From: Jaapia argillacea MUCL 33604
Taxonomy: Eukaryota; Basidiomycota; Agaricomycetes; Jaapiales; Jaapiaceae
Reading direction: 5' to 3'
DNA: 64,000 nt
Assembly (NCBI GenBank): GCA_000697665.1
Contig: KL197714.1
Coordinates: 342,209-406,208 of the forward strand
In this document: piece by piece, positions 2,184 through 60,160 of the stretch
How the letters are laid out: every line of letters starts with the position of its first letter
Numbering within the stretch: position 1 is the first letter of the stretch
Notes under the pieces: model-generated
The model's input: only the letters and a program-made list of their open reading frames with translations
The model's database searches: none
What the model was told of the DNA's origin: nothing
Position numbers and translations under genes: made by a program

Positions 2184-2224
2184 CATCAGGAAAATGTGAA
2201 AACTATACACAAACCCTGCTAAAA
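2184..2224 (+). repeat. left terminal inverted repeat of P1
   Basis: It begins CATCAG and contains the ATAC..AACCCTGCTA stretch that recurs, reverse-complemented, at 8512-8551. The match is imperfect, but the terminal hexamer and the inner block are shared. Confidence 0.55.
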
Positions 2225-2406
2225 TCAGAGTTCTTCATAGGCCTAAATTTATGGCCCTTTCTCAATAGCTTTGATAGACTGACATAGGCTCAATAGGCCT
2301 TCTTGTGGGAGCTATAAGGCATGTTATAAAAGAGAGGTCCATTTTATAAAACTACAGAAACTACCCTACTACACTGGCCATATACAAAGGGTTAAAATTC
2401 AAACAA

Positions 2407-5400
2407 TCAAATAATCATCTGAGAGCACTGGAGAAGGAAGAATGTGAACAGATCAAGCCATACATTCAAGTAAAATCCAGGGGCATCATCAAGAATGGTG
2501 TCTGAATGCCATGTTTTGTTCACCAAGGTACCAAATTTTGGAAGAAGGTGGCAGCTACGTATAATTTGACTGAGTGAGACCACCTCAATGTTCTGCCTGT
2601 GATTCTGAGTCGACCTTGAAACTGAATACATCCCAAGGACTGGATGAAAGGATTGGAAAGGCGTGAACCACTCAATATATGCAAGATACTGAGGATGGTC
2701 AGCTATGGAAAGCTGGTGTGGGAGTGCAAAGATAACTTTCACTTGTGCAACACGGAGACCTTTGAGAAAATAAGCACTATTTTGACAGTAGTAAAATGGA
2801 ATAGAGATTATCATACCTTGAAGTGGAGACAATTCATTGTGCTGATCCTTGGTCAGAACTAAGGCAGTATCAAAATGTGCAGGAGCCTTTTTTCAATCTG
2901 TATGCTCTGAGGTTGCTGGGGTTGCACGGATTCAATCATGTTGTCTTTCTCCATGGAGGATAGGAATGTGAGGCAGTTGGATCCAGACTTGATCATAAAT
3001 ATCAAACCGATCAACATCTGATGGAAGAATAACTGGACCAGTCAATGATGAAGGTTGAGAGTCAAGCAGATAGTTGGTGAGTGCTGGTAAAAATTGATCT
3101 GCACCATAGTCATTGATAATCTTCTCCATGTGTGTGTTTGGATGAGATGGGCACTTTGCAAGAGAAAGTGTCCGCCTTTTGAGCCAGGTACTTGTTGAAT
3201 GCTCCTCATCTATCACTTCTTGATCATCTTCTGAATCATCATCTCTGACCCTATTATCCACTCTAGACTTTTTTTTAACTTCTCGGGTAACTTTTGCCCA
3301 TTGAAGAAAGGCTGAGAAATAATTGACACTTTCTTGTCTTTGAAGCCATCTTGTCATTTGTACAACATACTGTCGTTTATTAGATGCTCGATATGCTTCT
3401 TTGGCGAAGTCAATGTGTAGTCGCTCTGGAAGCTCAGTATTGTATCCATCTGCAGATCCTCGTGATTTGATTGCATCAATGTAATGCTGCATTGCATGAA
3501 GCTTTGGAAAATTAAAATGCTGACGAATTCCCAATTTAATAAAGATGTCCTTATGTGTGTGAAATTCTTGCAGTGCCGAATCCAGAGCTGCAAGGCTGTC
3601 GGATGTATGGGTTTCAAAAGATGCAAAGTAAATAAAGTCAAGAATAGCTTTTGCAGTCTTAACAACTGCCTCTTGAGCTCCACTACCAAGAACACCCATG
3701 AAAACTTTCTCCATCTCTTTAAATTCAGACCCTGTCCATTGTGAAACAGAAGAGATTCCATGGTCAAAATTACGAAGTCCTGGAAAACTAGTCATACGAC
3801 GAAAGCGCTCATCAATCTCTTCACTTCCAACAACAGCCATACACCATTTGACCAAATGATCCTTAAACATCCCCTTATGAAGTTGATGAAGCAAGTCAGG
3901 AGTAAGGCAGGTAAAAATATCACTATGTGGAAGGTCTACCCAAAATGGTTTTCCAACAGCACGAAGACCTTGCTTTTTGAATTCTGGGACTCGACGCCCT
4001 GTAGCCTTGTGCTCAAGAATCTTGGCAGTCACAGTACAATCACGGTAAGCTAGATCATCTCGAAGCTCTCCACAGTGGTTTGGATCCTCCTTACACTGTG
4101 GACACCAGTTTTCATGGCAGCAGGCAATCAAACATCGTTCAGGATGGTCGGCAATATAGGCTGCAAGAATGGGAAACACTCTTCATACCCAACCATCAGC
4201 ACACACCATCTCTACACCACTTTGCCCAGCCTCAATCAGAGGTTGAAGAAGGGCATGCATACAGTAGTGAAAGAGTCGATACCCAGCTACAGATCGGGCA
4301 TTTTCGGCAATACAATCCAGTTTTGCAACTGGGATGTAGCCAAGGAGAACCATAGCATGTGAGGAAATTTTACGCCGGGTGTCCTTCTCAATATTTCCAA
4401 TAGAAAGATAAACAGGCCAAGCAGACTTATCACCCTTGAACATGGTAAGTTTTGTCTTATCTGAGGCAAGAATGACTGGTGCAACAGTGGCCCCAGAAGG
4501 TAGGATATCCTACAAGATGTATCAGGAATGGAATAAGCCAATGTTACAACAAAAACACCCCAAACTTGCCTGAATTTTCCACCACCAGTCCCCTGTCCAC
4601 ATCTCATCAAATATTCTCACCTTTCCCTCCTGGTCACGGTAAGCTAACTCAGGCATGTAGGAAAGATGATCACGGAACATCGGATTTCCGATGAGCTCAC
4701 GAACACATTCTACAGGATCACGTCTCCACAGTTCAAGCTCTTCAACCATGAGTTCATCATTATCATCAAGTTGATCCCCTGCAACCGACACTACCTGATG
4801 TATCCATGGAGTTGGTTGGGTGGGAATTGCATCTATCTTCTGGAGAAATGAATTGACATTCTTGTATGATGGCTGAGCCTGTTCCGATATCTAGATTCAA
4901 TGAGATACAGTCATTGGGAAGTAGATCAAACAAGCAACCTACAATTGGAAGCTTCAAAAACTTATCAGTCTGAACCTGACCAACAGTCTTGATAAGAAAC
5001 TGAGCTAACTCCCACTCGTCCTCATCCTCAAACTCGCCCCACGGTCCAACACCACTATCCTGCTGCTCCCTCGCAACCCTCTCAAATCCCGTCATTTCCT
5101 CACGAATTGTCACACCTGCAGGCTTTGGAAAGGGAATTGTATACCGAATTCCATAAGGATTATCTCCTTCATCCTCTGCATCCTCCATGTATGCCTTATG
5201 TGGGTGACGAGGCTGAACTGGTGGAGCAGGGGTTGGGTGCAGAGATGGGGGTGTCGGGGGGTGGGGGTCATCTAGGAGGGGTTCAACAGCAGCAGGGGAT
5301 GGAGGCCTTGAAGAACTATCATCCTCCGAATCTGTATCAATCAAGTCAGCAAGATCAATGGTGCTGTACATCCTCATCTTTGAAACCCATTTCTCGTGGC

Positions 5401-5479
5401 AGTCCTTCTTTCTCCTAATGTGCCGAGAGAGACCAGCTTTCGTGCGAATGAGATCCCCACAAAAGCAGCAGCTAGGCAT
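2407..5479 (-). pseudogene. Plavaka-like transposase of P1, with in-frame stops
   Basis: The chosen start gives a C2H2-like finger at residues 3-25 (CCFC...RHIRRKKDC), then an acidic and proline-rich linker. The conserved core follows: an '[11 protein letters not shown]' block (about 4420), CADGWV (4190), RVFPILAAYIADHPERC (4180), the cysteine-rich WCPQC (4100), LTPDLLHQLHKGMFKDHL (3880), ERLHIDFAKEAYR (3420), and RVAQVKVIFALP near the C-terminus. These are features of Plavaka transposases (CMC superfamily) found in basidiomycetes, which catalyse cut-and-paste transposition. Introns lie near 4935-4880 and 4570-4510. In-frame TGAs occur at 4185-4183, 2934-2932 and 2895-2893. The first sits where relatives, as I recall them, have Arg-Arg. 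The gene is probably inactive unless those codons are spliced out or read through. Confidence 0.75.
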
Positions 5480-5875
5480 GATGATGGTGGCAGACAAAGG
5501 TGAATTCCAGTTTGTTGCACTGCAGAGACGTGGATTGTCGTTGAGCACGATAGCGTCGGTTCGTGGAATCAAGGTTAGAGATCAGGTCCACGGTCCACAG
5601 GATCAAAGCATCTGGCGAATTCCTTGTGGCCAGTCATTGCCTGCTGACAGGTTGCTCGTGATTGCCACGACCGACCTTTCCACCTGCGCAGTTCATTATG
5701 ATTCTGGAATCGTCGAGGGCAGACACTGGCCTAGTACACGTGAGGGTTTTTTTCCAAAACATGTCCTGGATCAGATATTTATCAAGTACCTCGACACATT
5801 CTAGTCCTGGAGACGACTTTCAAGATCCGTCCATCAACTGTGCATATAAACAGGCATTCAGACGGATTCCACCCC
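5480..5875. promoter_or_regulatory. divergent promoter region inside P1
   Basis: This non-coding stretch of about 400 bp lies between the transposase and DUF6532 start codons. It must carry both promoters if both genes are transcribed. The equivalent region in P2 (46046-46215) is about 170 bp. I see no shared motif. Confidence 0.45.
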
Positions 5876-8264
5876 ATGCCACAAGCTAAACATCCCAATC
5901 CACCCAATCCTACCCTCGCATCTGAAAGATCCCCTCGCGCTCGTCGTCAAACTGCGAAGCTTGCCCAAGCAGGTCAGTCTCCTTCCGTTTTCCCACATCT
6001 TTAACTTATCCTTCGTGTTGTTCTTAGTGACAGACAAGTATGCGAAGGAACAAGCAACCAAGAACCGGGCGAAGACTGCATCGCTGAGGGCTCGGCAAGC
6101 CAAAGAGGAGGCTGCGGGGTTTGACAACATCTCAGACTCGCTTTGTAAGTGTGTTTGATTCTACACTGTTCTCAACTCATACCCCTCTTAGCACCAGAGT
6201 CAGAGGACGAGGAGCCCCTTGCGAAGGAAACCCAAATGGTACGTTGTTACTATTGTCTCTCCTCTACCCTTCAACTGACTGCCATATTGAAGTTCTCGAT
6301 TCAGACAGTATCCCCAAACCCTGTGCGACCGCGCCTAGTCCATCGCGTCGAACGTCATCCTGGAGTCGAGAACATCCCTCCTGTATCAACTGTTGGTGTC
6401 CTCGTACGTATCTCTACTTCTCACCCTCGCGTCACACCCACATCAACTTGAACACCAGCCAGATGTCTCGAATACGGCCCACAAGCTCGTCCGCCGTGTC
6501 GGTCATATTCCTCAACCACTGCCTGTTACTCTAGTGCCTCACAACGTGAACAACAATACATCTCAGCACCTTAGTCATACTGAAGAAGTCTCCCGCAATA
6601 CTGGTTTCTGTGACTCGCAGGACTAGTAAGTCTGTCCTCTTGAGTTCTTTTCTGAGCAATACTGATTGTATAATCTTTACTGTTGAGCAGCGATGATGAC
6701 GACGAGGGCACAACGGTACCAGCACATCACTCACACCATCATCGGCAGGAGCTGCCGCCTTCATCCCCACCACCTCCATCCCCACAATGTTCCTCCGTAC
6801 CGCCGCCTCGTGAGTGGACGGGAGCACAGATGCAGTAAGGAACCATGATACTTTATTTGCATCATGTTGCTGATTTTGTAACTGTTGCAGTCATGGCAAC
6901 GAGATTGGAGAGCCACTCCCGACCACCCATCACTCCCACCACAATCGACAACACCATCCACACCACCCATCTTCACCCTCTACACCTCTTCGACACTCTC
7001 GCCCGCGTTCCTCAGGACCATCGTCATCCCGCATTGTCAAGCGACGGAAGGTCGATGCCGGTGGCACCTGCAACCGCGTTCGAATGCACGACTACGAGCG
7101 CCTTGTACAGGCTGTTCTCAAGATTGCCACAAGCATCTATCGGTGTTGTGTATGCACCGAGAACCCATATCCCAACGACAAGGAGCAATTGCAGTGGGCT
7201 GGTGAGGCATGGGCAAGAGCATGTCAAGATAAGGGTATTGACATCGAGATGGACGAGGAGCATTCGAAACTGGTTTGTCTTCCTTGTTGACAATTGACTT
7301 CATTCACTGACTCCTTCCATTGCAGATCACAGCTCGAGCCTCACAGGTTCGTGGTGAACTCAAGACGGCAGCTCGGCTGCTTGTCGAATCTCACTACGGG
7401 CTGAGTGCGGGCCCACAGAAGGCGACCATCAACTGCAACCGGCGTCTCGTTAACGACCTCAAGAAAGGTCTTGCGTATGCGTTTGAGGTAAGACCTCCCA
7501 AATATCCGCACCCGGCTTTACTGACATCGGAGTCCCTCTCAAGGACCCATTCGCACGTTCTGGAATGTATGAACATCCAATTATTCAACAACTCATCAAT
7601 ACCATGTGGTTTCGTGATCCCCACGACGAAGGTATTGTGTATAAACGGTACTTCAAATGACGTATCCCCCTCGTTACCATCGCTCTTATCCTCACCGCCG
7701 TACGTCATTCAACTCCAATCTACACGACTAAATCTAATGTATGATAGGTTGAGTGTGCCCTCGATGAGTGGGGAAGTGGCTCGCACGTTGTCGTGCCATT
7801 CTCCAAGAGGGCATACTGTGAGAAGTACCAGGAAATTATTGACGCAATCGAAGACTTCGAACACAAGACCCATCAATTCAATATCATGCCACGGATATGT
7901 AAGAACCTCATCATCAATGCTTGGTACAAGGTTTTCTCGTCCCTTAGTTGTTCGATACTGACCCCTTTGCTTTGACAGCGCAAATGCAAGCGCCCCGCAA
8001 GACAAGACAGCTGCATCACTACCAGACGACTCCGACATTGCACGAGCCATCCAACGGTGGCGTGACCCTCGCGGATTCGGTGACGTTGATGATATGAGAG
8101 AAGACGGTAATCACGACATCTATGATGACAACAATCAGACCTCGCCCATGGCTCGCATCGAGGCTGAACATGAAGATATTGATATGGGGGAGGAGGGTGG
8201 CCATGAAGATGGTGCAGTTATGGCCACACATCCAGCCGCCACTGTTATGGATGATGATGACTGA
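5876..8264 (+). CDS. DUF6532 protein, putative accessory gene of P1
   Basis: The ATG at 5876 opens a multi-exon gene (exon 1 5876-5972, exon 2 6028-6144, then further exons). The N-terminal half is basic, proline- and histidine-rich and probably disordered. The C-terminal half, from about 7080, reads YERLVQAVLKIATSIYR, then PYPNDKEQLQWA, ITARASQVRGELKTAARLLV, DPFARSGMYEHPIIQQLI, and VECALDEWGSGSHVVVPFS. This pattern fits the DUF6532 domain of basidiomycete proteins, whose function is unknown to me. An acidic tail follows (ending 8262-8264). One in-frame TGA (7658-7660) lies between YFK and RIPLVTIALILTA, with the frame preserved on both sides. It may be a CGA decayed to TGA. The position inside the transposon ends, head to head with the transposase, suggests an element-borne function. 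Confidence 0.65.
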
Positions 8265-8511
8265 TCTTGTGAGTCCGTGTACCTGCCGTGTATGAATGCC
8301 TGGTATCGGTATGGCTTCCAGCGCTATCATCCTTCGGACTGGTGTGTACGATGCTTGTACCTCGCTGTTTTGTGTATGAGTACTCGTACGACTGTCTGTA
8401 CCATCATTTGTAACTTATTTGTATTTAAGTACAAAATCTTCAATGAGTGATTGATTGTCTTGTTCTCCTCTCGCTCGAGTGATCCTTGGGTGATGTTTGA
8501 CCAAAGCCATC

Positions 8512-8551
8512 CCTGCTAGGGTTAGTATTTCTTTGGTACTATCAGCTGATG
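8512..8551 (-). repeat. right terminal inverted repeat of P1
   Basis: Read on the minus strand it starts CATCAG and goes on to the AATACTAACCCTAGCA stretch matching the left end at 2184-2224. Confidence 0.55.
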
Positions 8552-9187
8552 TTGCTACGATAGCCAGATAGCTCGCGACTCTAGGGGCGTATGCTGGCCT
8601 TTGCTGGGCTACGGACCTATTTTACTACAATACTACAATTCCTCTGGGAGTATATACTTCCTATGTCATGCTATCAACCTACGGTACCCCGGAACTAGGG
8701 ATCTATGATACACCACATCAAGGCAGCTTCAACTATCCAAACCCACAAAGGAGGGGTTTGCCACTGGCTCTATTGTCCCTCTCCACCCCCTATTGTTCTC
8801 GGTACCCATCCCCCATTTTCCAGATGGGTGTCCACGGCGCAAATGCTTTGGGAGGAAGGATATCATCAGCCTTGACATCTCCAAGGCGATAGAAACGGGG
8901 CTTTTCGATACACCGACTCCAAGAATTCAATCCAGTTGATTGGAGAGGCATGAAGGTCATGGTTGATATTCAAACTCTGCTCCCTGCATCCACTCCTTGA
9001 TATTCAGTGCCAGTGCACTCTGTTTCGCATTTCACGCGTCCACTGTATCATTCTGACGAGTATGAGCCTCCTCTTAATCTTTACTATCGGCGTACAGAGG
9101 GAGTAAGACCATATCTGCCCAAATTACTCAACGATTCGTCCAATCCGAAGGATATGTTGACATGTTTCTTTGCGCCAACCTCTTACA
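8552..9187. other. gene-poor spacer
   Basis: There are only short unsupported open frames and no recognisable domain, RNA gene or strong repeat. It may be decayed sequence between P1 and the inverted-repeat structure that follows. Confidence 0.5.
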
Positions 9188-34459: not shown

Positions 34460-36125
34460 TCAACCGTCAACCGCCTCTAAGTTGCGCAAGCGGACGTTTC
34501 CGACTACTCCTTTGAGGTCATTCATGGGGATGAGACTGGGTTCTGGCCAGTCCACAAACTCCAGGGTGGTTAAATGAAGCCCGACCACTTGTCGCATTCC
34601 GAGCGCTTTCGCTAGAAGCTTCAGGGGTGTACGACGACTCGTGCCAGCGGGCGAGATGTTTCCCGCGACTCCCAACAGCGTCAATGCTTCCAAACGAGGG
34701 AGAATGATGTGAGTATCTTCCAACAGCGCCAGAACTAGCTCATCCATGAACTTCGCACACAACTCGATGGAGGTCACCTCAAGTAACCGCGTCTTCATAG
34801 ATAACCAGTCTTCGCTTCGAAGTTCCAAATCTGCTGTACAGTCGCATCGATAAGTGTACCTGTGACTCAGGTCAATCTCTTTCACGGAACACATTGGTAA
34901 GGCATTGATGCAGAGCGGGAGGAGACGAGGGAAGATATCATCCCGATCGTGGCTGCCCAAACACAGGGAAAAATAGGGAGGATCCTCCTGAGATCTCCCC
35001 AGCTGGGACGAGGTAAAACCACGGATGGTGATGAATCCCTCGGACCATGATTCTCTAGGATGCAGTCGCTCTGGCACGATACTGTAACGTTCAATTGACT
35101 TCGACATTTGTGGCCGATGGTGATTTTTGGCAATCGCGGCGAAGAGGACAGTGAGAGATGCCAGGGAGATGGCTTCCGGCGAGACGAAGCACACTTCTAC
35201 GGCCACAGAATCAGAATATGCGAGGTGATCCAACAGATGGGCACAGGAAAGACAGCTCGATTCCAGGGACAACACACGTAGGTGAGGGAGGAGAACATGA
35301 GGTTCCAGGTTTGTGTTTTCATCTCGGCCATGTGGTAAGGGAACTTTGAGCTTGAGTGTCTGCAACTTATTGCAAACCCCCAAGATATTGAGCAGTTGAC
35401 CCATAGTTGGTGGAAGGCCTCTTTCGCAGTCAAGTTCCAAGCTAACCAGCACTGGTGCTCGGAGGATCTGGGAATCCCAACAAAGAGGAAATCCTCGAAC
35501 GACAAGGGTACGCAAACTAGGGGCTTCGACGTTGAACTTCGCACTCTCGTATTCCCCCCAGCCAGAGACTATCAATTCGAGTGTCTGGAGTTGGGGAGCC
35601 ACGGTGCCTTGAAGACGTGGAACGATGTCATACTGGCCGGCCCTGATGGATATGGCAGCTATGCGCTGGATATTCTGGGTTATCAGATCGAGGGTTCGCC
35701 ACTTTTGAATCCGGTCCTTGAACTCAATGATGAGGGGTTGATCGCCCGATCTGCGGGCCATCTCAAAAGCCCACTTCTCCGAAAACATGGGGGGGCATAT
35801 CCAAAGCCGTGGATCCGAAAGAGCAATGGCTCGCCAATGTTGACAAACGTAGGTGATGTCTATCCACCATGAACAGGGAGATTGCTTCCGGAGGGGCAGG
35901 GGCTGAGTCACAGCATAGAGTCTGAATATCGCCAACAGAATTTCTGGAGGTAATCGAGAAATCGGTGCGAGTGAATTTCGGCGACCTGCCAGGACCCGCA
36001 TTTTTTCTTTTATTTTCTCCTGAGTCTCGATGCATCTGGTGAAGGCAGCGCCGGCAACGCTCGTGGTTGAGGGCCTTGTCAAGCGATAAACGATCAGATT
36101 GTACTTACTTGATTCTGTCTAGCAT
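34460..36125 (-). CDS. F-box protein 1
   Basis: A 17-nt first exon (36125-36109) and one long exon (36035-34460) give 530 residues: MLDRI-KCIETQEKIKEKM..., then the F-box core APISRLPPEILLAIFRLY at about residues 30-50, and YVCQHWRAIALSDPRLW. The remainder is leucine-rich with irregular repeat-like blocks (LRTLVVRGFPL, LLNILGVCNKLQTLKLKVPL). F-box proteins bind Skp1 and present substrates to SCF ubiquitin ligases. This type is hugely expanded in Agaricomycetes, with unknown substrates. The same 17-nt exon/intron plan is shared by F-box 2 and 3 in this window. It looks intact and is convergent with RPS26. Confidence 0.9.
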
Positions 36126-41634: not shown

Positions 41635-42586
41635 GGTGCAGATCGAGGATTGAAGATGAGAGAGATTAGATTGAGGGTTGAATTTCTGAGTGTATGAAGC
41701 TGGGGTGAAGAGGAACGATGTAAATTTCTCGTGCTTATAAAGGAGAAAGGCTATGAGAATGGGGAGGTAAAAGCTGCACAAGAAGCGGGGGGGGGGTCGT
41801 CGTGCCACCTGGCGACCGTTCGAGAACAATGACAAGAAGGGTCTGCGAAGTATAATGCATCCATGTACTCACAATGACTACGCTTTGAAAAGGAAGAATA
41901 AAGTCATTTCTTTATTTTCCCAAGAACAGGGCACTGTACATCAGCCCGGTACCCAGGTTCATCGTGGAGACTCGAAAAATCATGACGGAGGCTAAGCTAG
42001 AAGAAGGATGGACATGGTGTGGCGAAACAGTGAGAAATCTCGACACATAAATACGGACAGAAAACAAGGAGCAAGTACCTCCACAGGGTTCGGCTGAGAA
42101 GCGGTAGCAACTGGAAGGAATGCAAGCCCAGCCGCCAAAGCGCACCTCGGACGTCGGGTGCCGACAGTGGCGCCTACGCTGGAACTAGTGTCGAAGAACC
42201 GATGCAACTCGGCGGTGGTACCTCATCGTGTCGCAGTCATCGCTGTGAGCCTCCTGTAACAACGAATGTTGATTATATGCGCGGCGTGGACAGACTGGAC
42301 AGACAAGCTGACAGTAGAAAAAGCTCGCAGGCCCTCGTCACAGCGATCAAATGAGTTTGCACTCACCGACGGCGTGAATCAGAGATTGGACAAGCACCGT
42401 GCGGGCTTGCCAGTGCGTCGGACAACAAGTCCCTGCCCTCTGGGCACTCCCGAACACAGCCACCATAACTCAGGCACGCTCCAAGGCCCAATCTCCAGTG
42501 ACTAGTGACTTTGCACCTCGGCGGCCATCTGTAGAAGTATATAATCGACCTTAAAGTATTGCGAGCTGTACGAAGACGGCTCTGTC

Positions 42587-42619
42587 AGAGGCTCACGCAA
42601 TACAACGAAGAAAAGGTGA
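42587..42619 (+). repeat. 33-bp direct repeat, left of P2
   Basis: AGAGGCTCACGCAATACAAC and the next 13 bp recur exactly at 49166-49198 on the other side of P2, in the same orientation. The intervening flank sequences (about 47 and 40 bp to the element ends) are unrelated, so it is not a simple target duplication. Confidence 0.85.
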
Positions 42620-42666
42620 ATTTGTGTACCTGTACGAAGATGGCTCTGTCTACAGGTACATGAGTT

Positions 42667-42691
42667 CATCAGCATTCCCACAAACCTCTGG
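42667..42691 (+). repeat. left terminal inverted repeat of P2
   Basis: Begins CATCAG and contains TTCCCACAAA and CTCTGG. It pairs with 49101-49125 with about three mismatches in 25 bp. Confidence 0.75.
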
Positions 42692-42834
42692 GGCCCTGGC
42701 GACTCTGCTGGACTGGTGCTCCAGACTGCCAGAACCTTCCAGAGTTCCCAGAACATCAGCCCTCCAGTAGTCTTTGACACAGAGTTTAGGTATCGATTCG
42801 CTCCATCAACAATCACGAACCACTAGTAGTAGAA

Positions 42835-45800
42835 TTAGAATACAAACTGGTGTAAATGATGATCACCATACTTGTTTACATAGAACGAGCGAAATGCATC
42901 TAACGTAAACGAGAAATGAAAATCCTCTGGAAGAAATCCTGACCCATAAACCCCAATCAGATGAGCACTGCAAGCGATACAGTCGAGGTGGATAACAGCC
43001 ATGCTGCGGCGCCCGTTACCCAGATACTCAGGCTTCACGACCCACATACCTGTGACCTCATCAGGCTCATCTCCAACCACTTCCAGCCACTCCACGAGAG
43101 CACACGGATACCGAGTTCCCTCGTACGAGAACGCAAAGAAGAGCTTCACCCGACCCATGACCATTCCTCTCATCCCCGCCACACCAGCCACAGTCTCGAC
43201 AAAAACTGTGTCGTATTGAGCATACTCTCCCTGCCAATTTGGGTTACAGCGGATACGCTCACGATACATACCCCCTGCTCCACAGATGTCGCTGGGGGCA
43301 TAGAAGCGAGCGACTGCAGAGTGATAGACGGATATCCGCCCATGGAACTTGGGACATTCCTCCAGGGGGACGAGGTATGCAGGGATGGCAGCATTGGGGT
43401 GTATTTGTTCATAGAGGAACCGTCGAACAAGTGGAATAAGTGTTGGCTGTTTGATATGAGTCGCGAGATCAGGGAGCCGTTTTGGGTAGTCACGTTCTGT
43501 AGAAACTTGTCAGTTTAGTACATATGGCCAACGAAGACAAGACATACCTGCGGTTCGTGCCAACTCAACAAAGCTCATTACTTTTGGCCCATCAACTGGT
43601 CCGTTATCTTCATCCTCGTCCTCGCTATCCTCGCTATCGAGAGGCACCGGTTCATATCCCTCAAGGAGAGCCTCCGTGAACCACAAGGTGGAGCCCACCA
43701 TCAAGCCCTTCCTCGTGAGGACCTGACGAAGAGCTGCCATTTTGTCCATCCGCTCATTTGTACGGAGCATCTGTCGAAGTGCTTTGTATCGGCTTGATCG
43801 TCGCCACGGCTCCTTGACAGCTTTGATATGTTTCGACTCCGTTATCGATGAACACAGACCATTTGGAGAGCCGAACAGACGAATTCCACGAATATAATGC
43901 TTGAGAGAATGTTGGCGAGGGAGGGAGATATCATCTTCTCGGACACCAGTCTCGATGAAGATCTGTCGGTGGAGGTGAAAGCGAGAGAGGGTGTGGTCGA
44001 GCTCCTCGAGGGCAGTGCTGTCGAGCGAGTTTCGTCGGGCAATATAGCAGAAGTCCAAGAATGCGGCAAGGCACTTGACCATGCTGTCAGGGACATGGCC
44101 AGTTATCGCCGGAAGATACACCTGGGGAATTGTTAGTCTTCACCATGGTTGAGCTGACAGGGGTGTCAATAGAGTGCGCACCTTCATCAACGCCTTGGAA
44201 TCATCGCCGGTCCATTGAGTGAAGTCTCGACCATCTGGAAACCGGCGCAGCCCTGGGAAGGCAGGAACAGCAGCAATTCTATATTGCAGAGAATGGATGT
44301 CAATACTTGTCAATTGGTATTGAAGTGAGACACTTACCGTCGGTCAATATCTTCGATAATCTGGAAGGCACGGGCCTCCCCATGCTTGAGCACGAGATAT
44401 TCATTGACCCATGTTACGATGTGATCTTTGAATGTACCCTTGATGACCTGGTGGAGGAGATCGGGGGAAATGAGCTGGTGGATGTCAGCACGGGGGAATC
44501 CATGCATAAATGGCTACAAGCAAATAAAGTTCAGGGGAAATCTGAAACGCATGATGACAGAAACTCACGACTACATCCGCCCGAATGCCGAAATCGTCCC
44601 AAAGAACACCGCGGTCAAACACGCTAATGTAGAACTCCGTCTTCGTGGTGGTTCTTCGCCGAGCATCGTTATTGTCCAAATCTTCAGGGCACGCATTACA
44701 CCTTTGTGCGAGCAATGAGCAGACACAACGTTGAAAGGGGAAATGAGAACTTACTTCAGGCACCAGCCCTGAACAATACCACAGAGCCAGACCTGCTCTG
44801 GGTAATCAGCAATATATGGACCTAACCCATATATCGCGCATTGAAAATGACCATCCGCACACCATACAACTTCGGGGGTGGTCATCCCATTCTTCAGAGG
44901 GTTGAAGACACGTGCGAGGCATCCATGGTACATCTGGCGGCAGAATTTTTGATATGCTGGTTTGCGACGGTGTTTCTTGGATGCTATGAGTGCGAGACAT
45001 TAGTTATCTCAAGGCTCGACACCAAGATGAAATTTTTCCTGGCGAATGGACTTAGGACTTACTCTTTGGTATAGGGAGAAAGGCAACGGGAAGAACACTG
45101 TTGCTGTGGCCCTGACGAGCTGTGTTCGTCAAGATACCAGGGGACATGTAAACGGGGTGATATTCTTGATGCTCCGTTGCTACCGAGCAGGTTGTTTTAT
45201 CGCTACCAGCCACGATCGGGACATACATTGCCCCATGAGTACGAGGATCATTCGCAATGATATCCTGCAGAAAACCATTGAGATAAATAATAATGTCGAG
45301 TTGAGGAGTTCACTCACCGACTGTGCCCACGCAAAGTCACCAGACATCAGGTTTGAGTAGACCCGATTACCCGCCTTGTTGAACTGCCAATATGCAACTT
45401 TATTTTGATCCTTCCTGAAAGTGGAGTTCATAAGCTGGTTCTGGAGGACCAGACGAGAATCATGGGTACACAATTCATAGGTTTGAGTCATCCACTTTGG
45501 AGGTGTTCCGGCAGGTAAGGGGCCTTGATACCGCACCGTGTAGACCTTCCAAGGTGCACTCCCCTGCTGGATCTCGTCAATAACGGCATAGAGCTCTGCG
45601 GAGTTCTTCCAGGGAGATGTGTGGCCAAATTGATGGAGACTCGCCGCCCAGAATCCCAGTGACTTGTTGGTGATACCAGCGGAGGTTTGCGCTTCAACAA
45701 AATGCAGGTCAGCGAAGTCAAACTCAGTCCGATCCTGAAAGGGGTGGAAGGGACTTCCGCCGTTGACATTCATGTCTTCGGGTGGTGGGGGAGGTGGGGT

Positions 45801-46045
45801 ATTCGGTGGGAGGAAGACTCCATGTTCGTTACATGGTCGCGCTACCAGGGAATTTAGTAGAGATCCATGTTGGAAGGAGAGAACTTACCTGTTAGCTTTG
45901 AATGATACTGGAAGGTAAACAAATCTTCTGGCTCCCTTTCATCGCTGCTGTTGGAAGGAGTTTCAGGATGGGCCGAGTTAACATGTTGGGTCCGTCCACC
46001 AGGGGTTTTCAATATGCGATCGCAGCGTGGACAGGGGTAAGACAT
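42835..46045 (-). CDS. Plavaka-like transposase of P2
   Basis: The start gives MSYPCPRCDRILKTPGGRTQH, a C2H2 finger at residues 1-25. About eight exons then give FHPFQDRTEFDFADLHF, FGHTSPWKNSAELYAVIDEI, the block YHPVYMSPGILTNTARQGHS with VLPVAFLPIPK, PEVVWCADGHFQCAIYGLGP, YIADYPEQVWLCGIVQGWCL, DDFGIRADVV, HQLISPDLLHQVIKGTFKDH, PRQHSLKHYIRGIRLFGSPN, ITESKHIKAVKEPWRRSSRY, and a C-terminal exon ending FYVNKYGDHHLHQFVF. Order and motifs are those of Plavaka transposases. The frame is open across every exon I could join. It should catalyse excision and insertion of CATCAG-ended DNA. It has no close nucleotide match to the P1 enzyme. Confidence 0.82.
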
Positions 46046-46215
46046 GGATAATGATCCGAAAAAGTGTAGTTAAAATAAAATCTATTGAAGAGTGTGGGTA
46101 GAGAGAAACAAGTGTTGATGTTGCGAGGAGTTGGGATTGTGACGAGTCCAAACAAAACCATACATGGACTTGGGAGATTTTTTGCAGGTTGGCACCCAGC
46201 AAACCTGTGTCCCCT

Positions 46216-48601
46216 ATGTCACAGGCCACCCGTCGCACAACTCGCTCCCAGAAAAATCCCTCAGCCGAGTCTCTTGCTGGAGAATCCACCCCACCTCTCG
46301 GACCTGTAGAACCTCCATCAGCTACGAAGCCAGGGTCACGGAAAGTAAATTTAAGACTCACCATTCCCCCCCAGCAGTCAGGTGATGTAAACAGTGTTGG
46401 TGGTGACGACACAGTCACCGAGCCCCCTGCCGCTACTGGTCAGCTTCAGAAAACCACAAAAAAACGCGGGAGAGCCCCAAGCATACCAGCTCAGGCTTCA
46501 CCCAGTAACACAGCAGCGAAACCACCACCAGCGAAGAAATTGAAAGGGAGCCGCTCGAAGAAAAAGGCTCAGGTGGACCAGGACCTCGAAACAGTGGAGA
46601 TACAGGACTTACCCACCAATTTGGAGCCTTCGAACAACCCAGTCCAACCACCCTCGAAACCAAAGGTCCCGAAAGCGCCAATTCCTCCTCATTCACCGGT
46701 TCCACCTCGTGATGCACACCCAGCAGCACCGGGAGCTCCTGATATGCCACGACTCCGACGAACTTCAGAGGAGGTCCAGAAACAGGTGCTTGCCAAGGCC
46801 GAGGTAGACGCGAAGATTGAACTACTCCTGAAGCAACGGATTCGCATTGTTGCGAAGATGGAGATGGCAGATGGTGAGGCAGAGGATGCAGAGGATTTGG
46901 GGGCCATTCGAAATCTTGCTGACATCGAGGAGGAGGAGGAGGACACACAGGAGGCTATGGGCGGCGATGGTCTTGATGTTGATGTTCGAATGGAGAGAGA
47001 GTCGGGGGAAGAAGGGAACGGCAAGGAAAGCCAGAAGAAAGTACCAGCGGTGGTGAGTGAACTTGCCAATTATCGTTCCCAGCCACTGAGAAGGTTTTAT
47101 GATAGAAGAGAAAAAAGAAAGCAGCAAAGGGGGAGACTCATGCTGCGATCGACGTGGTGAAAGCAAAGATATCTGAGTCTAAAGCTGCTGGGAAGAAACC
47201 GATGTGAGTTCCCGAGCCATCACTTCTTTACCTCACGACTTAAGGTTATGACGAACCTCGATAAACGTGGCTGTCTGCTTCCTTTCATGCAATAGATCTA
47301 CCAAGATTGCGACTGGTTAGCTCCTAACTGGAAAGCCAAAGCAGCTCTCGATGATGGCTCGAATAATGCTGGAAACAGCGAGGCTCTGGGTGGTTTGGAT
47401 GATGACGACTTGGCCCAGGATAAGCCAATATTTGGGAAGAAGACTACCCAGGCTCGAGAGAACGATGTACGTTGATGTTCGTCTGATACACTCTACCACC
47501 GCTGACCCTCCCCTTAGTTTGTCTATATTGGGGGTACAGACTCCGATGACGAATTAGACGTGTCCACACCGACCCCAAAGCAGAAGCCTCAAAAATTTGG
47601 CGAGAAATCCACGACCACCAAATCCACGATGGCCATCAAGCCCACACCTCATCAGCCCAAGCCAGTGAAGAAGGCACCTGTTCCAACGACATCCTGCATC
47701 AAGGTGGAATCTATCTCCTCCCTCTTCGCCCCAGGAGGTGACAGATCCGCTGAATATGCCGCTCTCCCTCCCTTCGCAAAATTGGGGTGGCATGTGTTCC
47801 TAGCTACGCTCTACACCAAGTTTGGGAGCTCAATTATCCCTTGGAAAGTCTTATCTCCTGACGATAAGCACGCTGCCGAAATATTCGTTCAAGATGTTGT
47901 CAACTTGGTCTGGCCTAACTCTGGTTATCCTGTAAAGTGGGGCGGACCCATTCTCAGTGCAGTAAGTTTTTCAATTAGTTCATCTCCCCCTCCACGTGAA
48001 GTTGACAACGACTTTGGTCAGGCTAAGGATCGCATCTATGATCGCCGCTCTCAAATCGGGAAAACGGCAATTACATTGGTCCACGAGTGCTTCAAAGACG
48101 AGGAGTTTTGAGGCAAACCACCCACAGTGGTTGCTGCCTATGCGAAGTATGCAGTGATTGGCGGCCCGGCATTGTGGGGATCTCCCGCTCCACAAGGGAA
48201 GAAAAAGGGTGATGCTGGATATGTGGTGAGTAACACCCTTTCCCCTGTCGCTCATCTGCTGACTCAAATGCTTTGTCCTTAGGCCCCTGCAGATTTATAT
48301 TATTCATCGTTCGTAATTGGAACTCTCGCTCCATTCTTAAAGGTGACCTACGGCGCTCTTGGCGAGGATCTCAATCCAATCGGAGCCCTGGCTCTGGTTG
48401 CAGTCGCCGTAAGTTCCCGATTTGACTAATGTCTAACTCAAAACTAATACTTCTGTTCAGGTCGAGCGAGCCTTTACAACGTATTACACTGGAACATATG
48501 TTGCACCGAAGAAGTTTGCGAAGGAGTGGACGCTAAGCATGGTTAACGACCAGCTTGTCAATGTGCGAGCCCTTTCCCCTCGGCGATGGAAGGAGATTTG
48601 A
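46216..48601 (+). CDS. DUF6532-like protein, putative accessory gene of P2
   Basis: The ATG at 46216 (MSQATRRTTRSQK) opens a long disordered, Pro/Lys/Ala-rich region with a basic patch (AKKLKGSRSKKK) and an acidic coiled-coil-like stretch (KAEVDAKIELLLKQRIRIV...). The C-terminal part, from 47560 on, gives FAKLGWHVFLATLYTKFGSS, AKDRIYDRRSQIGKTAITLV, VAAYAKYAVIGGPALWGSP, APADLYYSSFVIGTLAPFLK, PIGALALVAVAVERAFTTYY and TGTYVAPKKFAKEW. These align in order with the DUF6532 region of the P1 gene (R..Q..KTA..LV; I.AL.L.AVE.A....TG..V...F.). One in-frame TGA (48109-48111) splits DEEF from GKPPTVVAAYAKY. The frame across the junction near 47200-47295 could not be resolved. It may be a decayed copy, or depend on splicing I missed. 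Confidence 0.55.
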
Positions 48602-49100
48602 GACCACTGTGGAAAGGCGAATGGTTTTCAGGGGCATGTGTCTTCGGCTCCCAATCCTGACATTATTTTGCACTCGGATGAGCATCACACACTTTACATT
48701 CCCAGTAGTCCCATCCCCCCTTCCGGAAGTGACTCAGAGGTTGAGTGAGCATGTCGCATAAAGGTTTGTTCTCGCCCTACTCCGATTGCGTTGACTAACC
48801 GTTGCTTTATCCTAGCATTGTCCAAATGGTCAATCCATCCAATTCAACTCGGACTACAAAATGGGTGCTCTAGTTTCTCGTCTTTCATGATAATGCTGTA
48901 GGATTAGTATGCTACAGTTGTTGACTCAATAAATCAGTGTTGTTTTGTCACTTCTGGATTCTGGCACTCTGGTGGACTCTGGTTGAACTGGCACCGTATT
49001 TCATGATCTCAAAAAATGTGCTCTGGCGAGGATTTGAACCTGACTTGTCGGCTGGGGCCTGGCTCTCTGGAAACATCTGGAAATCTCTGTGCCAGAACCG

Positions 49101-49125
49101 CCAGAGATTTGTGGGAAACCTGATG
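49101..49125 (-). repeat. right terminal inverted repeat of P2
   Basis: The reverse complement reads CATCAGGTTTCCCACAAATC and then TCTGG, matching 42667-42691. Confidence 0.75.
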
Positions 49126-49165
49126 CTTATGATAGGAATAATAAGCTTTAACGGAAATACTCACC

Positions 49166-49198
49166 AGAGGCTCACGCAATACAACGAAGAAAAGGTGA
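49166..49198 (+). repeat. 33-bp direct repeat, right of P2
   Basis: Identical to 42587-42619. Confidence 0.85.
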
Positions 49199-49419
49199 GC
49201 CTCCGAAATGCGAAGGGGGAAGTCTATATATGAATGCGCGGTAACGAACGTTGATCAAACCAAGTAACGAACATGGGATAAAGGAAATGAAATATCGGGA
49301 ACATAACCGCAAAAGGACTCGAAACATAAGAAACGGAAGGCGTACTTCAGCCACGTTTGCTATTCCAACACCATCAACCATCTGTCTTGTCTCAATACCC
49401 TCCAAGTTGGGTACCAGAT

Positions 49420-50937: not shown

Positions 50938-52082
50938 TCAGCAAAAGTTGGGGTAGTCTTATGAGGGATTATGGCAAATTTTGTCATGTAACCAATTGTG
51001 GCACCCGAGCCTCCAGTGGTAATCATCGTATAACACCCCTGCAAGCGGCGATAACTCCACTCCAAGTTGTGGCAACCGGGCCCCAAGACACCACAACTTC
51101 TCAGAAGAGTATTACAACAGTTTTTGGAATTTTAGAGCTCCATGCTCCAGAGCAATAATATCTCATATCAGTCATAAGTCTCAGACTGGGGATGCCTATA
51201 CCTATCCTCCAGCCATGAGTTAGACCGCCTGAAGATCTCATACGAGGAGAAAACATGTACATAACACCTCTTTATCTATGCTTACTGGTCAAGCTACGGA
51301 AAGTACACACGGACGATCCACAACCTATCCGATACTCGCAGCTCCTCTCCGAGCAAGCTATACACTAGAAAGGGACAAAACCTTGAAATTAACAGAAATT
51401 GAGAATGAACCCGATTGAACCGAGCGCGAAGGGGCGGAGTGTCTGCCAGATAGAACTACAAGTAGTACGGAATCGATATATTGATACCTCGCAGGCGAGA
51501 GGCGGGAGGCGGTGGCCAAGTTTGGGTTGTTCCTGTGTCGGGTGGTGTTGGTCAAGAGCAGCGGTGGAAGGGCCGACGAGCATCAGTATATATGGTTGCG
51601 CGTGCCTTTGCATTTTAGGCCAGCTTGGTCGAGTTGGATGGNGTCGTGTCGGAAATGTAAGCCACGAGGCTCCGAGTTCGAATCCCGTAGATAAAATAGC
51701 CATTTCTCTAGAAATAGAAATTCCATAAATAGACCGAGGCGCGTAGGACCCCATAAGGGACTGAAACCCCTCGGGAGGCAGACGAGACGGATGGCGGGTG
51801 GGGGGCTCCATAGAAGAGTGACGGCTTCAGAGGGGAGCGGCGATAACTTTTGGCCCTTGTGTTTTGACCATCTCATAGGATGTGGGGCTGGGACTCGCAA
51901 GTGTTCATAAGTACCGCCACTGGGCGTTATAGTATATTATAGGTTAAAGCGGAGTAGTTATCGCAAGTTATCACAAGATAGAGCTGTTGTCCCTACCTGA
52001 TAACATGGCCAGGTGATTTTCTCAGATTATGATGATTATAAGTGCTTATGCGCGCCCATATACCAACCCCACTTTTTTCTGA
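50938..52082. mobile_element. 1.15-kb TIR element inside F-box 3
   Basis: The ends are imperfect inverted repeats of about 30 bp (TCAGCAAAAGTTGGGGTAGT / TCAGAAAAAAGTGGGGTTGG). A second inverted match lies further in (GCGATAACTCCAC near 51050, and its partner near 51965). It has no transposase and no long supported frame, so it is non-autonomous. The flanking 8-mers AGAGGGAC and AGGAGGAG agree at only 5 of 8 positions, so the superfamily (hAT would give 8 bp) is not proven. One ambiguous base (n) lies at 51641. Confidence 0.65.
51612..51695 (+). ncRNA. tRNA-like fragment inside the TIR element
   Basis: It has an A-box-like TGGTCGAGTTGG and a B-box-like GAGTTCGAATCCC at tRNA-like spacing, resembling a type-II (Ser/Leu-like) tRNA. 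The acceptor and T stems do not pair properly, and one base is ambiguous. It is most likely a SINE-type tRNA-derived head, nested in the TIR element. Confidence 0.4.
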
Positions 52083-53401
52083 AGGAGGAGGTGTGTGGAG
52101 GCACCGTGGAGCGCTCGGGTCCCGGCTCCGAGACACAGTGAAAAACAGGGCTGTTCCTCTTGACCCAATTGTAGCGAGGTGAAGCCCTGAACTGTTATAT
52201 ATGTTACTGTATCGCGCTGTTGCATCCTTCGCCGTGTTACAACTTTGTCTTCAGTGAGTTGCCGGTTCACAACCCTGCATCGCCGGATGGACTCCGCTTG
52301 TGACCCAGAACGATATTTTGAGGCAATTGCATCAAAGAAAGAAGCGAGAGATGTTTGCGACATTATGTTGTCGGTACAGTGCACCTGGGTGGAGACGGAG
52401 GCAGGGTAGGCCAGTAGGTTCAACAAATCGGTACAAGAGCGGCAATCCCATTGCAACGATATGCACTGTAGTTGAGGTAAGGGGATTGGAGTATCTGTGT
52501 CCAAAGGAAGTTCTACGCCATGTGCGATACGTGGGATCGGCACTTTGAGAGTGAGAGTCTGCAATTTATTGCAAGACCGCAAAACATCAAGCAATTGGCG
52601 CGTGGATGGCGCACGTGGGCTGCATTCAAGACCACATATGAGGACCAGGCTAACTAGCATTGGGGCTCGGAGGATTTGTGAGTTCCAGTGGATGGCGATG
52701 TCTCGAACAAAAAGGCGACGCAAGTTAGGGCAATCGATATCGAGAACTACTGGCTGCGGGGAACGACGAGCATTCTCGTGTGCTTTCCAGCTAAGGGACT
52801 CGAGTTGAGTTGCTGAGAGGCCCCGAAGTGGTTTGGAGATAATCTCTGTCCCATGAGGAAATGAACAGAAGGAGAGCTCCTTCACTCTTGTGATTTCCGC
52901 GGTGATCATATCTGGGACTGAAGAATGTTGCCAGGTGAATTGAGGGTGCCAGGTAGGATCCGAAACACTCCATTGAATGACAAGTGGGAGAGAGTCCGAC
53001 CGGCGAATCATTTCGGGACCCCAAACTGGTGAAAACATCGGTGGGTGTGTCCATAGAGATCGAGACGCAATTGCAAGGGTACGCCAATGGTGACAAACAT
53101 AGGTAATGTTAATCCACCAATCCGGCAACGTAATGCATTCAGAGTAACGGGTCGACGGGCTATTCAGCTGACAGAGAGGCTGATCTGCAACACAGGTTGC
53201 GAATATTTTCAATAATAACTCATCAGGGAGAGTGGAGATAGGTGCAAGTTTGTTACGGTGTCTTGCAAGGGCGACCCTCTGGCTGTCTATTTCCTTCATA
53301 ATTTCCATAAATCTAGGGAAGGGGCGTCGAGACCGCATCAGGTGAGTGTTACGTGCGACGTGACAACGAACAGGCTGCACTTACCCGGTTGTGTCGAGCA
53401 T

Positions 53402-58582: not shown

Positions 58583-60160
58583 TTATTGAGGCAAGGTTTC
58601 CTTCTGTTCTCGTAAATGTCGTCTTTCGATCGCGAGTTTAGACTCGTGGCCAAGGATTTTTGTGCGGCCCTGCCAACAAAAGTCGATCACGATCAGAACC
58701 CATATCGCCGTATACCCCGAAATTCACGAAGAGGTATGGAATGATGGTACTCACCTCCTTGTACTTCATATGAACGAGTGTCGCGACAACTGCTATCCAA
58801 TAGAAGACGTATGACAACACCGAGCCCACTGACAGCCAACATCAAGTTAGCAGAGAAGGAGGGGAGAGGGGAGGAGAGCGGCTCACGTGTAGCACTATTA
58901 GTCCAACCAAAAATAGCACCGAATATTAACCACCCTTGTCCGTCAAAGTTGTTATCAGGGTTACAACAATCCAAATGCCAGACGTTCCCCCGAACGTTGA
59001 AAGATCCCGGTCCGTCGCCTGATACATCATCTACATCGGCTCCGAGCCTTGATCGAGAAGAAGCAAGTGCTTGTTAGATGGGGATTGGAAGTGGGGGGAG
59101 GGTGACGTACAAAGTGTTGAATGCATGTTCTTGGAATGCCCAGATGGCTTTTGAGAATAGACCAGCGCCGATGAGGAGGATGAAGTTGGTCATGACCACC
59201 AAGAATACTCTCAACGCTAAGGTTACCCCAATACCCCATCAGTTTCATGCCGAGACCGCAACGAGGAAAGAAGATACTCACTCGTCCGACTAGCAAAAGC
59301 ATAAATCAAGAATCCACAGCCGACCCCACAAACCAACCCTGCAATAGCAGCGATGGGGATGGAAGTGGCCGGTTGGCCGAGTGAGACACCGCCTACGAAG
59401 ATGACTGCTTCCATTCCTTCGCGGAGGACGGTGATCATTGGAAGGATGAGAAGGATCCATTTGCCTGTTCGGGTTCGAGAGTCTACCTCTGGGTGAAAGG
59501 TATGATGTGTCAATAGGGAAAGGGCAGGAGGGGCGAAGGGAAGGCAGACAGACTTTTGCCTTCGAATGCTCGTTGGAGTTTGACGCGCCATTTAGCCTTG
59601 GCGCGATCGAGTTTGAGCATTGTGATTCCCATTACGAAGATCATAAAGGATGCGATTAATTCGAAGATTCCTAGAGAGGTTGTGTTGGAATATGTGGAGA
59701 AAAGAGAGGGGGAGGGCGTTACCTTCCCATAGCTCCTCGGATTTCGCCCACAAATTTGATGCTTGAGTAAACCAGACAGCGATGAAAGCTGCGCCGATGG
59801 CGAGGGCAATCCCAAGGCCGATACCAGCTCCCAGGAAGATCTTGTGAGGAAAGTTAGGTCATGAGGAAGGTGGATTGTGCGAGGCCAACCCACTTGTATG
59901 CGTAGCTTCCGCTCCAGCCTCTGAGAAGTGAGGGTCGGACTTGCACTGTCCTCGCTCTCACCATCCCCCTTCTCAGCAGTGGCCCCCGTGGGCTCTTCGG
60001 ACGTGACGATGGTGGCCACCCCATCTTGGCTCAATTTCGCAGGATCAGTCCCGACGATCTGCTTGACGAGACCGAGTAGAACAGAAACGATGATAGCAGC
60101 CTCGAGAGTCTCACGAAAGACGATGAAGAAGATGGGGACTGAGAAGAGCTCCTTGATCAT
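58583..60160 (-). CDS. FTR1: high-affinity iron permease
   Basis: The start (60160) gives MIKELFSVPIFFIVF-RETLE-AAIIVSVLLG, the first of the two Arg-Glu-x-x-Glu iron-transport motifs. The second is VL-REGME-AVIFVGGVSLG. Seven membrane segments are expected: visible ones include GIGLGIALAIGAAFIAVWFT, GIFELIASFMIFVMGITML, LILPMITVL, IAGLVCGVGCGFLIYAFASR, FLVVMTNFILLIGAGLFSKA and SYVFYWIAVVATLVHMKYKE. The loop WHLDCCNPDNN...GWLIFGAIFGWTNSAT is family-typical. The cytoplasmic tail ends ...EQKETLPQ. FTR1 sits in the plasma membrane in complex with the FET3 ferroxidase and takes up Fe(III) as it is made. The gene is divergent from FET3 and intact. Confidence 0.93.

What the first reader, a model, noticed from the sequence alone, without database searches (positions are those of the whole stretch)
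42667..49125. Plavaka transposase and a DUF6532-like gene form a two-gene divergent module inside one transposon
P2 has matched CATCAG termini that enclose both an open Plavaka-type transposase (minus) and a divergent gene ending in a DUF6532-like domain (plus). P1 at 2184-8551 repeats the plan with diverged proteins, near-equal length and its own CATCAG ends. Two independent copies with the same layout argue that the second gene belongs to the element. DUF6532 is very abundant in basidiomycetes and I know of no stated function. An accessory role (targeting, DNA binding or anti-silencing) in Plavaka elements would explain the expansion.
Basis: partly seen in the sequence, partly recalled or inferred. 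Interest (0 to 1): 0.78.

Follow-up and report, generated by a model that had tools for sequence, protein, structure and literature searches.

The report
Fungal jumping gene with partner gene
Mobile DNA elements in this fungus carry two genes back to back, the cutting enzyme and a partner protein of unknown function that travels inside the element, which gives a nameless protein family a biological setting that can be tested.

Summary
The main claim holds. P2 (42667-49125) is a Plavaka (PlavakaB-type) transposon with matching ends, a minus-strand transposase and a divergent second gene. Its joined flanks align to uninterrupted copies elsewhere in the genome, so both genes entered as one segment. 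P1's second gene is true DUF6532 (PF20149); its right end is 8826, not 8551. P2's second gene matches no Pfam model but is a remote DUF6532 relative by profile comparison. In this genome 23 of 29 second-gene loci (23 of 31 with two fragments) lie within 10 kb of a Plavaka gene, 21 divergently; KDZ control 1 of 41. In 11 of 11 elements with readable ends, inverted repeats enclose both genes; 10 of 11 have exact 2-bp target duplications. The partner is under purifying selection (dN/dS 0.05-0.30) and broadly co-diverges with the transposase. In 6 of 11 elements a short motif is significantly repeated at the ends. Best mechanism, inferred: a TnpA-like partner that binds end repeats; anti-silencing is the main rival. 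The library searched held no statement of this link. Limits: one genome, no binding or mobility data, no structure.

The parts
42667..49125 (.). P2 Plavaka element, 6459 bp, both genes enclosed
   Evidence: End repeats 21 of 24; empty-site alignment
42667..42692 (+). P2 left terminal inverted repeat
   Evidence: same terminus type in C16 and C60
49100..49125 (-). P2 right terminal inverted repeat
42664..42666 (.). Left target-site copy GTT (right copy reads CTT at 49126-49128; the empty site in C33 reads GAGTTATG)
   Evidence: a 3-bp duplication with one changed base is inferred
42835..46045 (-). P2 Plavaka transposase gene, 9 exons in a naive model, N-terminal C2H2-like finger (read from the sequence), open
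   Evidence: PF18759; exon chain
46046..46215 (.). 170-bp shared intergenic (divergent promoter) region of P2
   Evidence: promoter role inferred
46216..48747 (+). P2 second gene, 7 exons in my model, basic N-terminal part, C-terminal remote-DUF6532 domain (about 47518-48602); in-frame stops in the domain
42693..42966 (.). P2 left subterminal region rich in CCAGA/TCTGG
48826..49099 (.). P2 right subterminal region rich in CCAGA/TCTGG
2184..8826 (.). P1 Plavaka element, 6643 bp, corrected right end, GG target duplication
2932..5479 (-). P1 Plavaka transposase gene (in-frame stop present)
   Evidence: PF18759 412.8 bits
5876..8264 (+). P1 second gene; PF20149 DUF6532 domain at about 7126-7858 (in-frame stop present); gene limits read from the sequence
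8801..8826 (-). P1 right terminal inverted repeat CATCTGGAAAATG

Best explanation
P1 and P2 are decayed copies of two distantly related PlavakaB-type (CACTA-like) transposons that carry two head-to-head genes: a Plavaka transposase and a DUF6532-type partner. Shown: both genes lie between the ends, P2's whole segment is absent from homologous empty sites, the pairing recurs across this genome, and the partner has been kept under purifying selection. Inferred: the partner is a nuclear DNA-binding protein that works like TnpA of En/Spm. It would bind a short motif repeated near both ends of its own family, bring the ends together or load the transposase, and so make transposition family-specific. 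Its faster evolution would follow from protein and end repeats changing together.
For: Association 23 of 29 loci within 10 kb, 21 divergent; ends enclose both genes in 11 of 11 readable elements, exact 2-bp duplication in 10 of 11; for C16 and C60 only 800-bp stretches placed by P2's geometry were fetched, and they contained both ends; empty sites; dN/dS of the partner 0.054 (C20-C6b; transposase 0.059), 0.137 (P1-C33), 0.296 (C49-C35); identity matrices of 12 loci correlate, r 0.80, none of 20000 permutations as high; 8 representatives r 0.44, p 0.033; partner identity is below transposase identity in 57 of 66 pairs; motif counts per 300 bp, C8 CCATAG 7 and 3 in the end bins against 1 in the rest, P2 CCAGA 6 and 7 in the end bins against 20 spread over the 20 inner bins; TnpA precedent, including divergence of binder and repeats (PMC2613891, passages).
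Against: No binding, expression or mobility data and no structure. Only 6 of 11 elements show significant end repeats one by one (P2, C16, C20, C6b, C85, C8, some of them related to each other); P1, C33, C63, C24 and C60 do not. The transposase's own N-terminal finger could be the binder. 31 of 54 Plavaka loci show no partner, through decay, fast divergence, masked sequence or true absence. C10 has a tandem layout. The deep accessory tree disagrees with the transposase tree. The shuffles keep dinucleotides only.
Confidence: 0.55

Rival explanations
1. The partner is a sequence-specific anti-silencing factor, like VANC of Arabidopsis VANDAL elements: it binds repeats in its own family and removes or blocks repressive marks, so the transposase gene stays on.
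For: VANC proteins bind short motifs that vary between related elements and co-evolve with them (PMC5735166, abstract and passages), a pattern like the one here. P1 and P2 are CpG-poor, observed/expected 0.63 and 0.73 against 0.84, which fits methylation. In C34 a weak Tet_JBP match lies between transposase and partner (E 0.015; C22 is a related copy), and TET-bearing PlavakaB elements are published (PMC12730594).
Against: In C8, C20 and C6b the repeats sit at both ends and hardly inside, as for a protein of the transposition complex; in P2 the inner counts are not negligible. Some elements may already have a separate TET-like gene beside the partner.
Confidence: 0.25
2. The second gene is a captured passenger of no use to the element that merely hitch-hikes between the ends.
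For: 31 of 54 Plavaka loci show no partner, and P2's own partner is broken while its transposase reads open.
Against: Purifying selection on the partner, as strong as on the transposase in C20-C6b; pairing kept across families whose transposases share only about 25% identity, with phase-0 introns in corresponding places (read).
Confidence: 0.1
3. P1-type DUF6532 and the P2-type gene are unrelated proteins recruited twice into the same position.
For: No Pfam match for P2 at E 10; no significant match with the first local profile; a first profile comparison with fewer DUF6532 sequences was weak (score 26.0, P 0.0078); deep trees disagree.
Against: With 9 DUF6532 sequences the profile-profile score is 43.1, E 1.3e-5, probability 80%; a rerun gave 41.9 against at most 25.1 in 300 column shuffles and 13.9 reversed; an intron of the same phase at the A|V-E of the conserved block (read).
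Confidence: 0.12

Closest known systems
PlavakaB transposons (CMCT clade; Kojima 2025, PMC12730594)
   Same: Plavaka transposase, CATCA..TGATG ends, 2-3 bp target duplications
   Different: The outline, passages and section 3.2 that I read do not mention a DUF6532-type second gene; P1's right end and both ends of C8 and C33 are CATCTG
CACTA (En/Spm, Tam1, Tgmt*) two-function elements TnpD/TnpA (PMC2613891, passages)
   Same: Transposase plus a fast-evolving second protein; short family-specific repeats near the ends; small target duplication
   Different: Separate divergent genes instead of alternative transcripts; no sequence relation of the partner to TnpA was shown; binding untested
VANDAL/VANC anti-silencing elements (PMC5735166, passages)
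   Same: Element-encoded accessory protein that evolves with repeated target motifs
   Different: Different transposase class (recalled); repeats here concentrate at the two ends; no demethylation data
Nuwa/Harbinger elements with a Myb/SANT partner (PMC12730594 passage)
   Same: DNA transposon with transposase plus an element-encoded DNA-binding partner
   Different: Pfam scans of the second-gene exons showed no Myb/SANT domain; unrelated transposase

Membership tests
PlavakaB transposon | PF18759 transposase | tested here: met
   P1 412.8 bits, P2 143.1 bits for the best exon match, cut-off 26.3
PlavakaB transposon | CATCA..TGATG ends | tested here: met
   Both ends in 8 of 11 elements (P2, C16, C60, C20, C63, C85, C24, C6b); P1 left only; C8 and C33 have CATCT at both ends
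PlavakaB transposon | 2-3 bp target duplication | tested here: met
   Exact 2 bp in 10 of 11 elements; P2 GTT/CTT with empty-site support
DUF6532 (PF20149), P1 gene | Pfam model over cut-off | tested here: met
   Exon pieces 34.7, 47.5 and 41 bits against 24
DUF6532 (PF20149), P2 gene | Pfam model over cut-off | tested here: not met
   No family at E 10; only remote homology
TnpA-like partner of CACTA elements | Repeated motif near both ends | tested here: inconclusive
   Significant alone in 6 of 11 elements, strongest in C8, C20, C6b
TnpA-like partner of CACTA elements | Protein binds those repeats and is needed for transposition | not testable with these tools
   Needs binding and mobility assays
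VANC-like anti-silencing factor | Causes loss of silencing marks on its own family | not testable with these tools
   No methylation or expression data

The most novel reading that the evidence does not exclude
DUF6532 and its unnamed P2-type relatives are one fast-evolving DNA-binding family: the second subunit of a bipartite Plavaka transposase, each family having its own protein-repeat code at the ends, joined in some elements by a TET/JBP gene to form a three-gene unit that also opens its own chromatin.
Probability: 0.35. Interest if true: 0.8.

Novelty: new variant of a known kind. Interest (0 to 1): 0.62.

Why it matters
It gives a protein family with no stated function that I could find a setting and a direct test: DUF6532 counts in mushroom genomes would then largely track transposon load, not host biology. 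It adds a basidiomycete two-gene system to compare with En/Spm, where one protein cuts and another reads the ends. Gene catalogues that treat DUF6532 expansions as lifestyle genes may need correcting; PMC8955403 lists it beside Plavaka without linking them (passage).

Tried and rejected
Bare CATCAG as evidence: rejected, at chance level. P1 right end at 8551: rejected in favour of 8826. C3 as a true pair: doubtful; its transposase groups with P2 (47%) but its DUF6532 does not (24%), and the layout is convergent. KDZ or Transposase_21 as the partner's real home: rejected, 1 of 41 and 0 of 13 loci have a second-gene locus within 10 kb. Solved relatives: profile A2 gave only Cyanovirin-N chains (two tandem dimers E 0.00048 and 0.0021, single domains E 0.26 or worse), judged chance; A1 gave none. 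PF20515 found nothing in this genome or in the 14 controls. A viral-contig scan with A2 was not possible. Species-wide counts were not possible, since no relatives of this genome are held.

In the end-motif scan C34, C22, C10 and C3 had little flank, and C82 and C1:393k had no detected partner and much masked sequence; none of these six showed a matched pair, and they are left out of the 11. In 6 of the 8 PF20149 elements the scan gave one candidate on each side; C8 had two further right-hand hits (at or just after the transposase domain) and C24 a second left-hand hit further out, and there the target duplication supports the pair chosen. The motif was drawn from six loci whose ranking had included the duplication; C20, C6b, C16 and C60 are outside that choice (4 of 4 with duplication, though the ranking also used it). 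The subterminal test by groups pools related copies and uses Markov sampling; the per-element test is the one relied on. dS is near saturation in several pairs and saturated for P1-C20.

Second-gene tally: 16 PF20149 loci and 13 P2-type loci, 11 (down to E 0.03) plus C24:95723 and C1:3362070 (E 5e-5 and 7e-4). C35 lies at a contig end and cannot be judged, yet is counted as unpaired. Two further matches, C23:575808 (E 1.6e-7) and C3:513830 (E 0.004), neither within 10 kb of a Plavaka match, were left out of the 29; with them it is 23 of 31. The 54 Plavaka, 41 KDZ and 16 DUF6532 loci were merged by hand from 133, 71 and 26 exon matches, fragments included; the tool calls such counts lower bounds.

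Full report
What is there. The window is C6:342209-406208 of a 43.7-Mb genome in 95 contigs. P2 at 42667-49125 has terminal inverted repeats agreeing at 21 of 24 positions, a Plavaka transposase on the minus strand (PF18759) that reads open through a GT-AG exon chain (naive model), and a plus-strand gene whose start codon lies 170 bp from the transposase start. P1 has the same plan. Its left end at 2184 is right, but its partner end is CATCTGGAAAATG at 8826 with GG on both sides, not 8551. The hexamer alone is at chance level.

The second gene. In P1 it is PF20149 DUF6532 in three separate exon pieces. In P2 no Pfam model matches at E 10, nor did the first local DUF6532 profile. Its own relatives were found in the genome. 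A first profile comparison with 6 DUF6532 sequences was weak (score 26.0, P 0.0078, probability 5%). With 9 DUF6532 and 6 P2-type sequences the score is 43.1, E 1.3e-5, probability 80%. A rerun gave 41.9, against at most 25.1 in 300 column shuffles and 13.9 for the reversed profile. The aligned block (ALILTA|VECALDEWGSG with ALVAVA|VERAFTTYYTG) carries a phase-0 intron at the same column in both, and two further introns are phase 0 at similar places (read). So P2's gene is a remote member of the same kind, not a Pfam member.

Genome-wide pairing. PF20149 gives 16 loci: 12 lie within 10 kb of a Plavaka match, 10 of these divergent, one tandem (C10), one convergent (C3, doubtful). P2-type searches give 13 loci: 11 within 10 kb, all divergent at 2.0-2.8 kb; C35 is cut by a contig end and C1:3362070 is a weak orphan. 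In all, 23 of 29 are paired, or 23 of 31 with two further DUF6532 fragments, while at most 2.6% of the genome lies within 10 kb of a Plavaka gene (its binomial figure of 9e-31 was for 22 of 27 and assumes independent loci). KDZ transposases, an equally expanded class, have a second-gene locus within 10 kb in 1 of 41 cases, and Transposase_21 matches in 0 of 13. The reverse is weaker: 23 of 54 Plavaka loci, fragments included, show a partner.

The partner is inside the mobile segment. A terminus-motif scan that did not use the target duplication found bounding motifs on both sides in 8 of 8 divergent PF20149 elements with readable flanks; 6 of the 8 had a single candidate on each side, C8 and C24 had more than one. 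The 8 show these 2-bp duplications: P1 GG, C8 AT, C20 TA, C63 CA, C33 TA, C24 AG, C85 CC, C6b TA. For two P2-type elements I fetched only 800-bp stretches placed by P2's geometry; they contained both ends of C16 and C60 (matches 22 and 20 of 26, duplications CA and AA, lengths 6406 and 6431 bp). P2 itself lacks an exact duplication (GTT/CTT). Its joined flanks, however, match uninterrupted sequence at C54 (77% over 13-276 of 286), C33 (78% over 13-228) and C68 (70% over 14-228). The C33 copy reads CATGAGTTATGATA where P2 reads CATGAGTT[element]CTTATGATA, which fits a 3-bp GTT duplication with one later change.

Selection and co-divergence. dN/dS of the partner is 0.137 (P1-C33; transposase 0.072), 0.054 (C20-C6b; transposase 0.059), 0.138 and 0.182 (C24 against C20 and C6b), 0.168 and 0.192 (P2 against C16 and C60) and 0.296 (C49-C35); dS is near saturation in several pairs and saturated for P1-C20. 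Partner identity is below transposase identity in 57 of 66 locus pairs; the 9 exceptions are C20-C6b and pairs with C3 or C10. Identity matrices correlate over 12 loci (r 0.80, none of 20000 permutations as high; Spearman 0.57) but only modestly over 8 representatives (r 0.44, p 0.033). The trees agree on P1 with C33 and on C20, C6b, C24, and disagree at deep nodes.

How it may work. Ends carry short repeated motifs that differ between families: CCAGA/TCTGG in P2 and C16, GCTACA in C20 and C6b, CCATAG in C8, ATTTTC in C85. In C8 the counts per 300 bp are 7 in the first bin, 3 in the last and 1 elsewhere; in P2 they are 6 and 7 in the end bins and 20 over the 20 inner bins, so concentrated, not confined. 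One by one, 6 of 11 elements are significant (at most 3 of 300 shuffles reach the value) and 5 are not: C60 24, P1 23, C24 22, C63 145 and C33 186 of 300. In CACTA elements TnpA binds such subterminal repeats, is required with TnpD for transposition, and binder and repeats diverge together (PMC2613891, passages). The P2 partner has a basic N-terminal part (net +11 over 160 residues) and then an acidic stretch (-12 over the next 140, part of it with doubtful splicing). I therefore favour a TnpA-like end-binding partner. VANC-like anti-silencing (PMC5735166, passages) predicts much the same sequence pattern and stays the main rival.

State of the copies. P2's partner has two in-frame stops in its domain and P1 has a stop in each gene, so neither is a working two-gene copy as it stands. 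Relatives whose fetched second-gene exons have no stops exist.

Known or new. Kojima 2025 defines PlavakaB by CATCA..TGATG ends and 2-3 bp duplications and reports TET-bearing members (PMC12730594; outline, passages and section 3.2 read); in what I read there is no DUF6532. Marasmius oreades papers describe Plavaka and say that its TIR motif was characterised in a supplement (PMC8290104, PMC9674265, passages); PMC11075540 mentions Plavaka in Rhizophagus (passages). Searches for DUF6532 and PF20149 each found one paper, which lists it beside Plavaka among additional domains (PMC8955403, passage). The Plavaka search held 11 papers, 10 listed; I looked into 5 of these by passages and saw the other 5 only as listings. 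A search for a second ORF in basidiomycete CACTA elements gave 20 papers, of which I saw 10 listings. Supplements, Repbase and the Iyer et al. paper (looked up by a recalled PubMed id, not held) were not seen, so an unnamed second ORF may already be recorded there. The TnpA/TnpD analogy makes this a new variant of a known kind.

Noticed in passing
L037 (C34:253500-263400) and L038 (C22:393500-403300): Two related copies (84-92% DNA identity in the aligned pieces). In C34, between Plavaka (minus) and DUF6532 (plus), an open plus-strand piece has a weak Tet_JBP match (PF12851, E 0.015, below cut-off): a possible three-gene TET-bearing Plavaka.
   Followed up: partly
C36:314898-317026 of the own genome: DUF6532 exons lie 1.5-1.8 kb from a Tet_JBP match (below cut-off) on the same strand, with no Plavaka match on that contig; same order as in C34.
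   Followed up: no
L039 (C10:40900-48200): Plavaka and DUF6532 genes on the same strand, one after the other, not divergent; no matched ends in the fetched stretch.
   Followed up: partly
own genome, e.g. C3:1595135-1598086, C78:66088-69012, C80:37492-40333: 18 of 25 Tet_JBP matches lie within 2.5 kb of a KDZ transposase match, as expected for TET-bearing KDZ elements.
   Followed up: partly
42517-42666 and 49126-49260: The P2 insertion site is itself part of a dispersed repeat with relatives at C54, C33 and C68; a 34-bp stretch occurs on both sides of P2 and is also present twice in those uninterrupted copies.
   Followed up: yes
13784-13929 and 14134-14294: Two nearby arrays of a related 21-bp unit (TTTCGACGCATATACTC...).
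   Followed up: no
2184-8826 and 42667-49125: Both elements are CpG-poorer (0.63, 0.73) than 9000-42000 of the window (0.84); the TA/AT index is not raised (0.60, 0.58 against 0.63), so this is not classic RIP.
   Followed up: no
34460-36118, 52046-53380, 59510-60373 (minus): F-box-like matches (both below cut-off) in two ORFs and an FTR1 iron permease match in a third.
   Followed up: no
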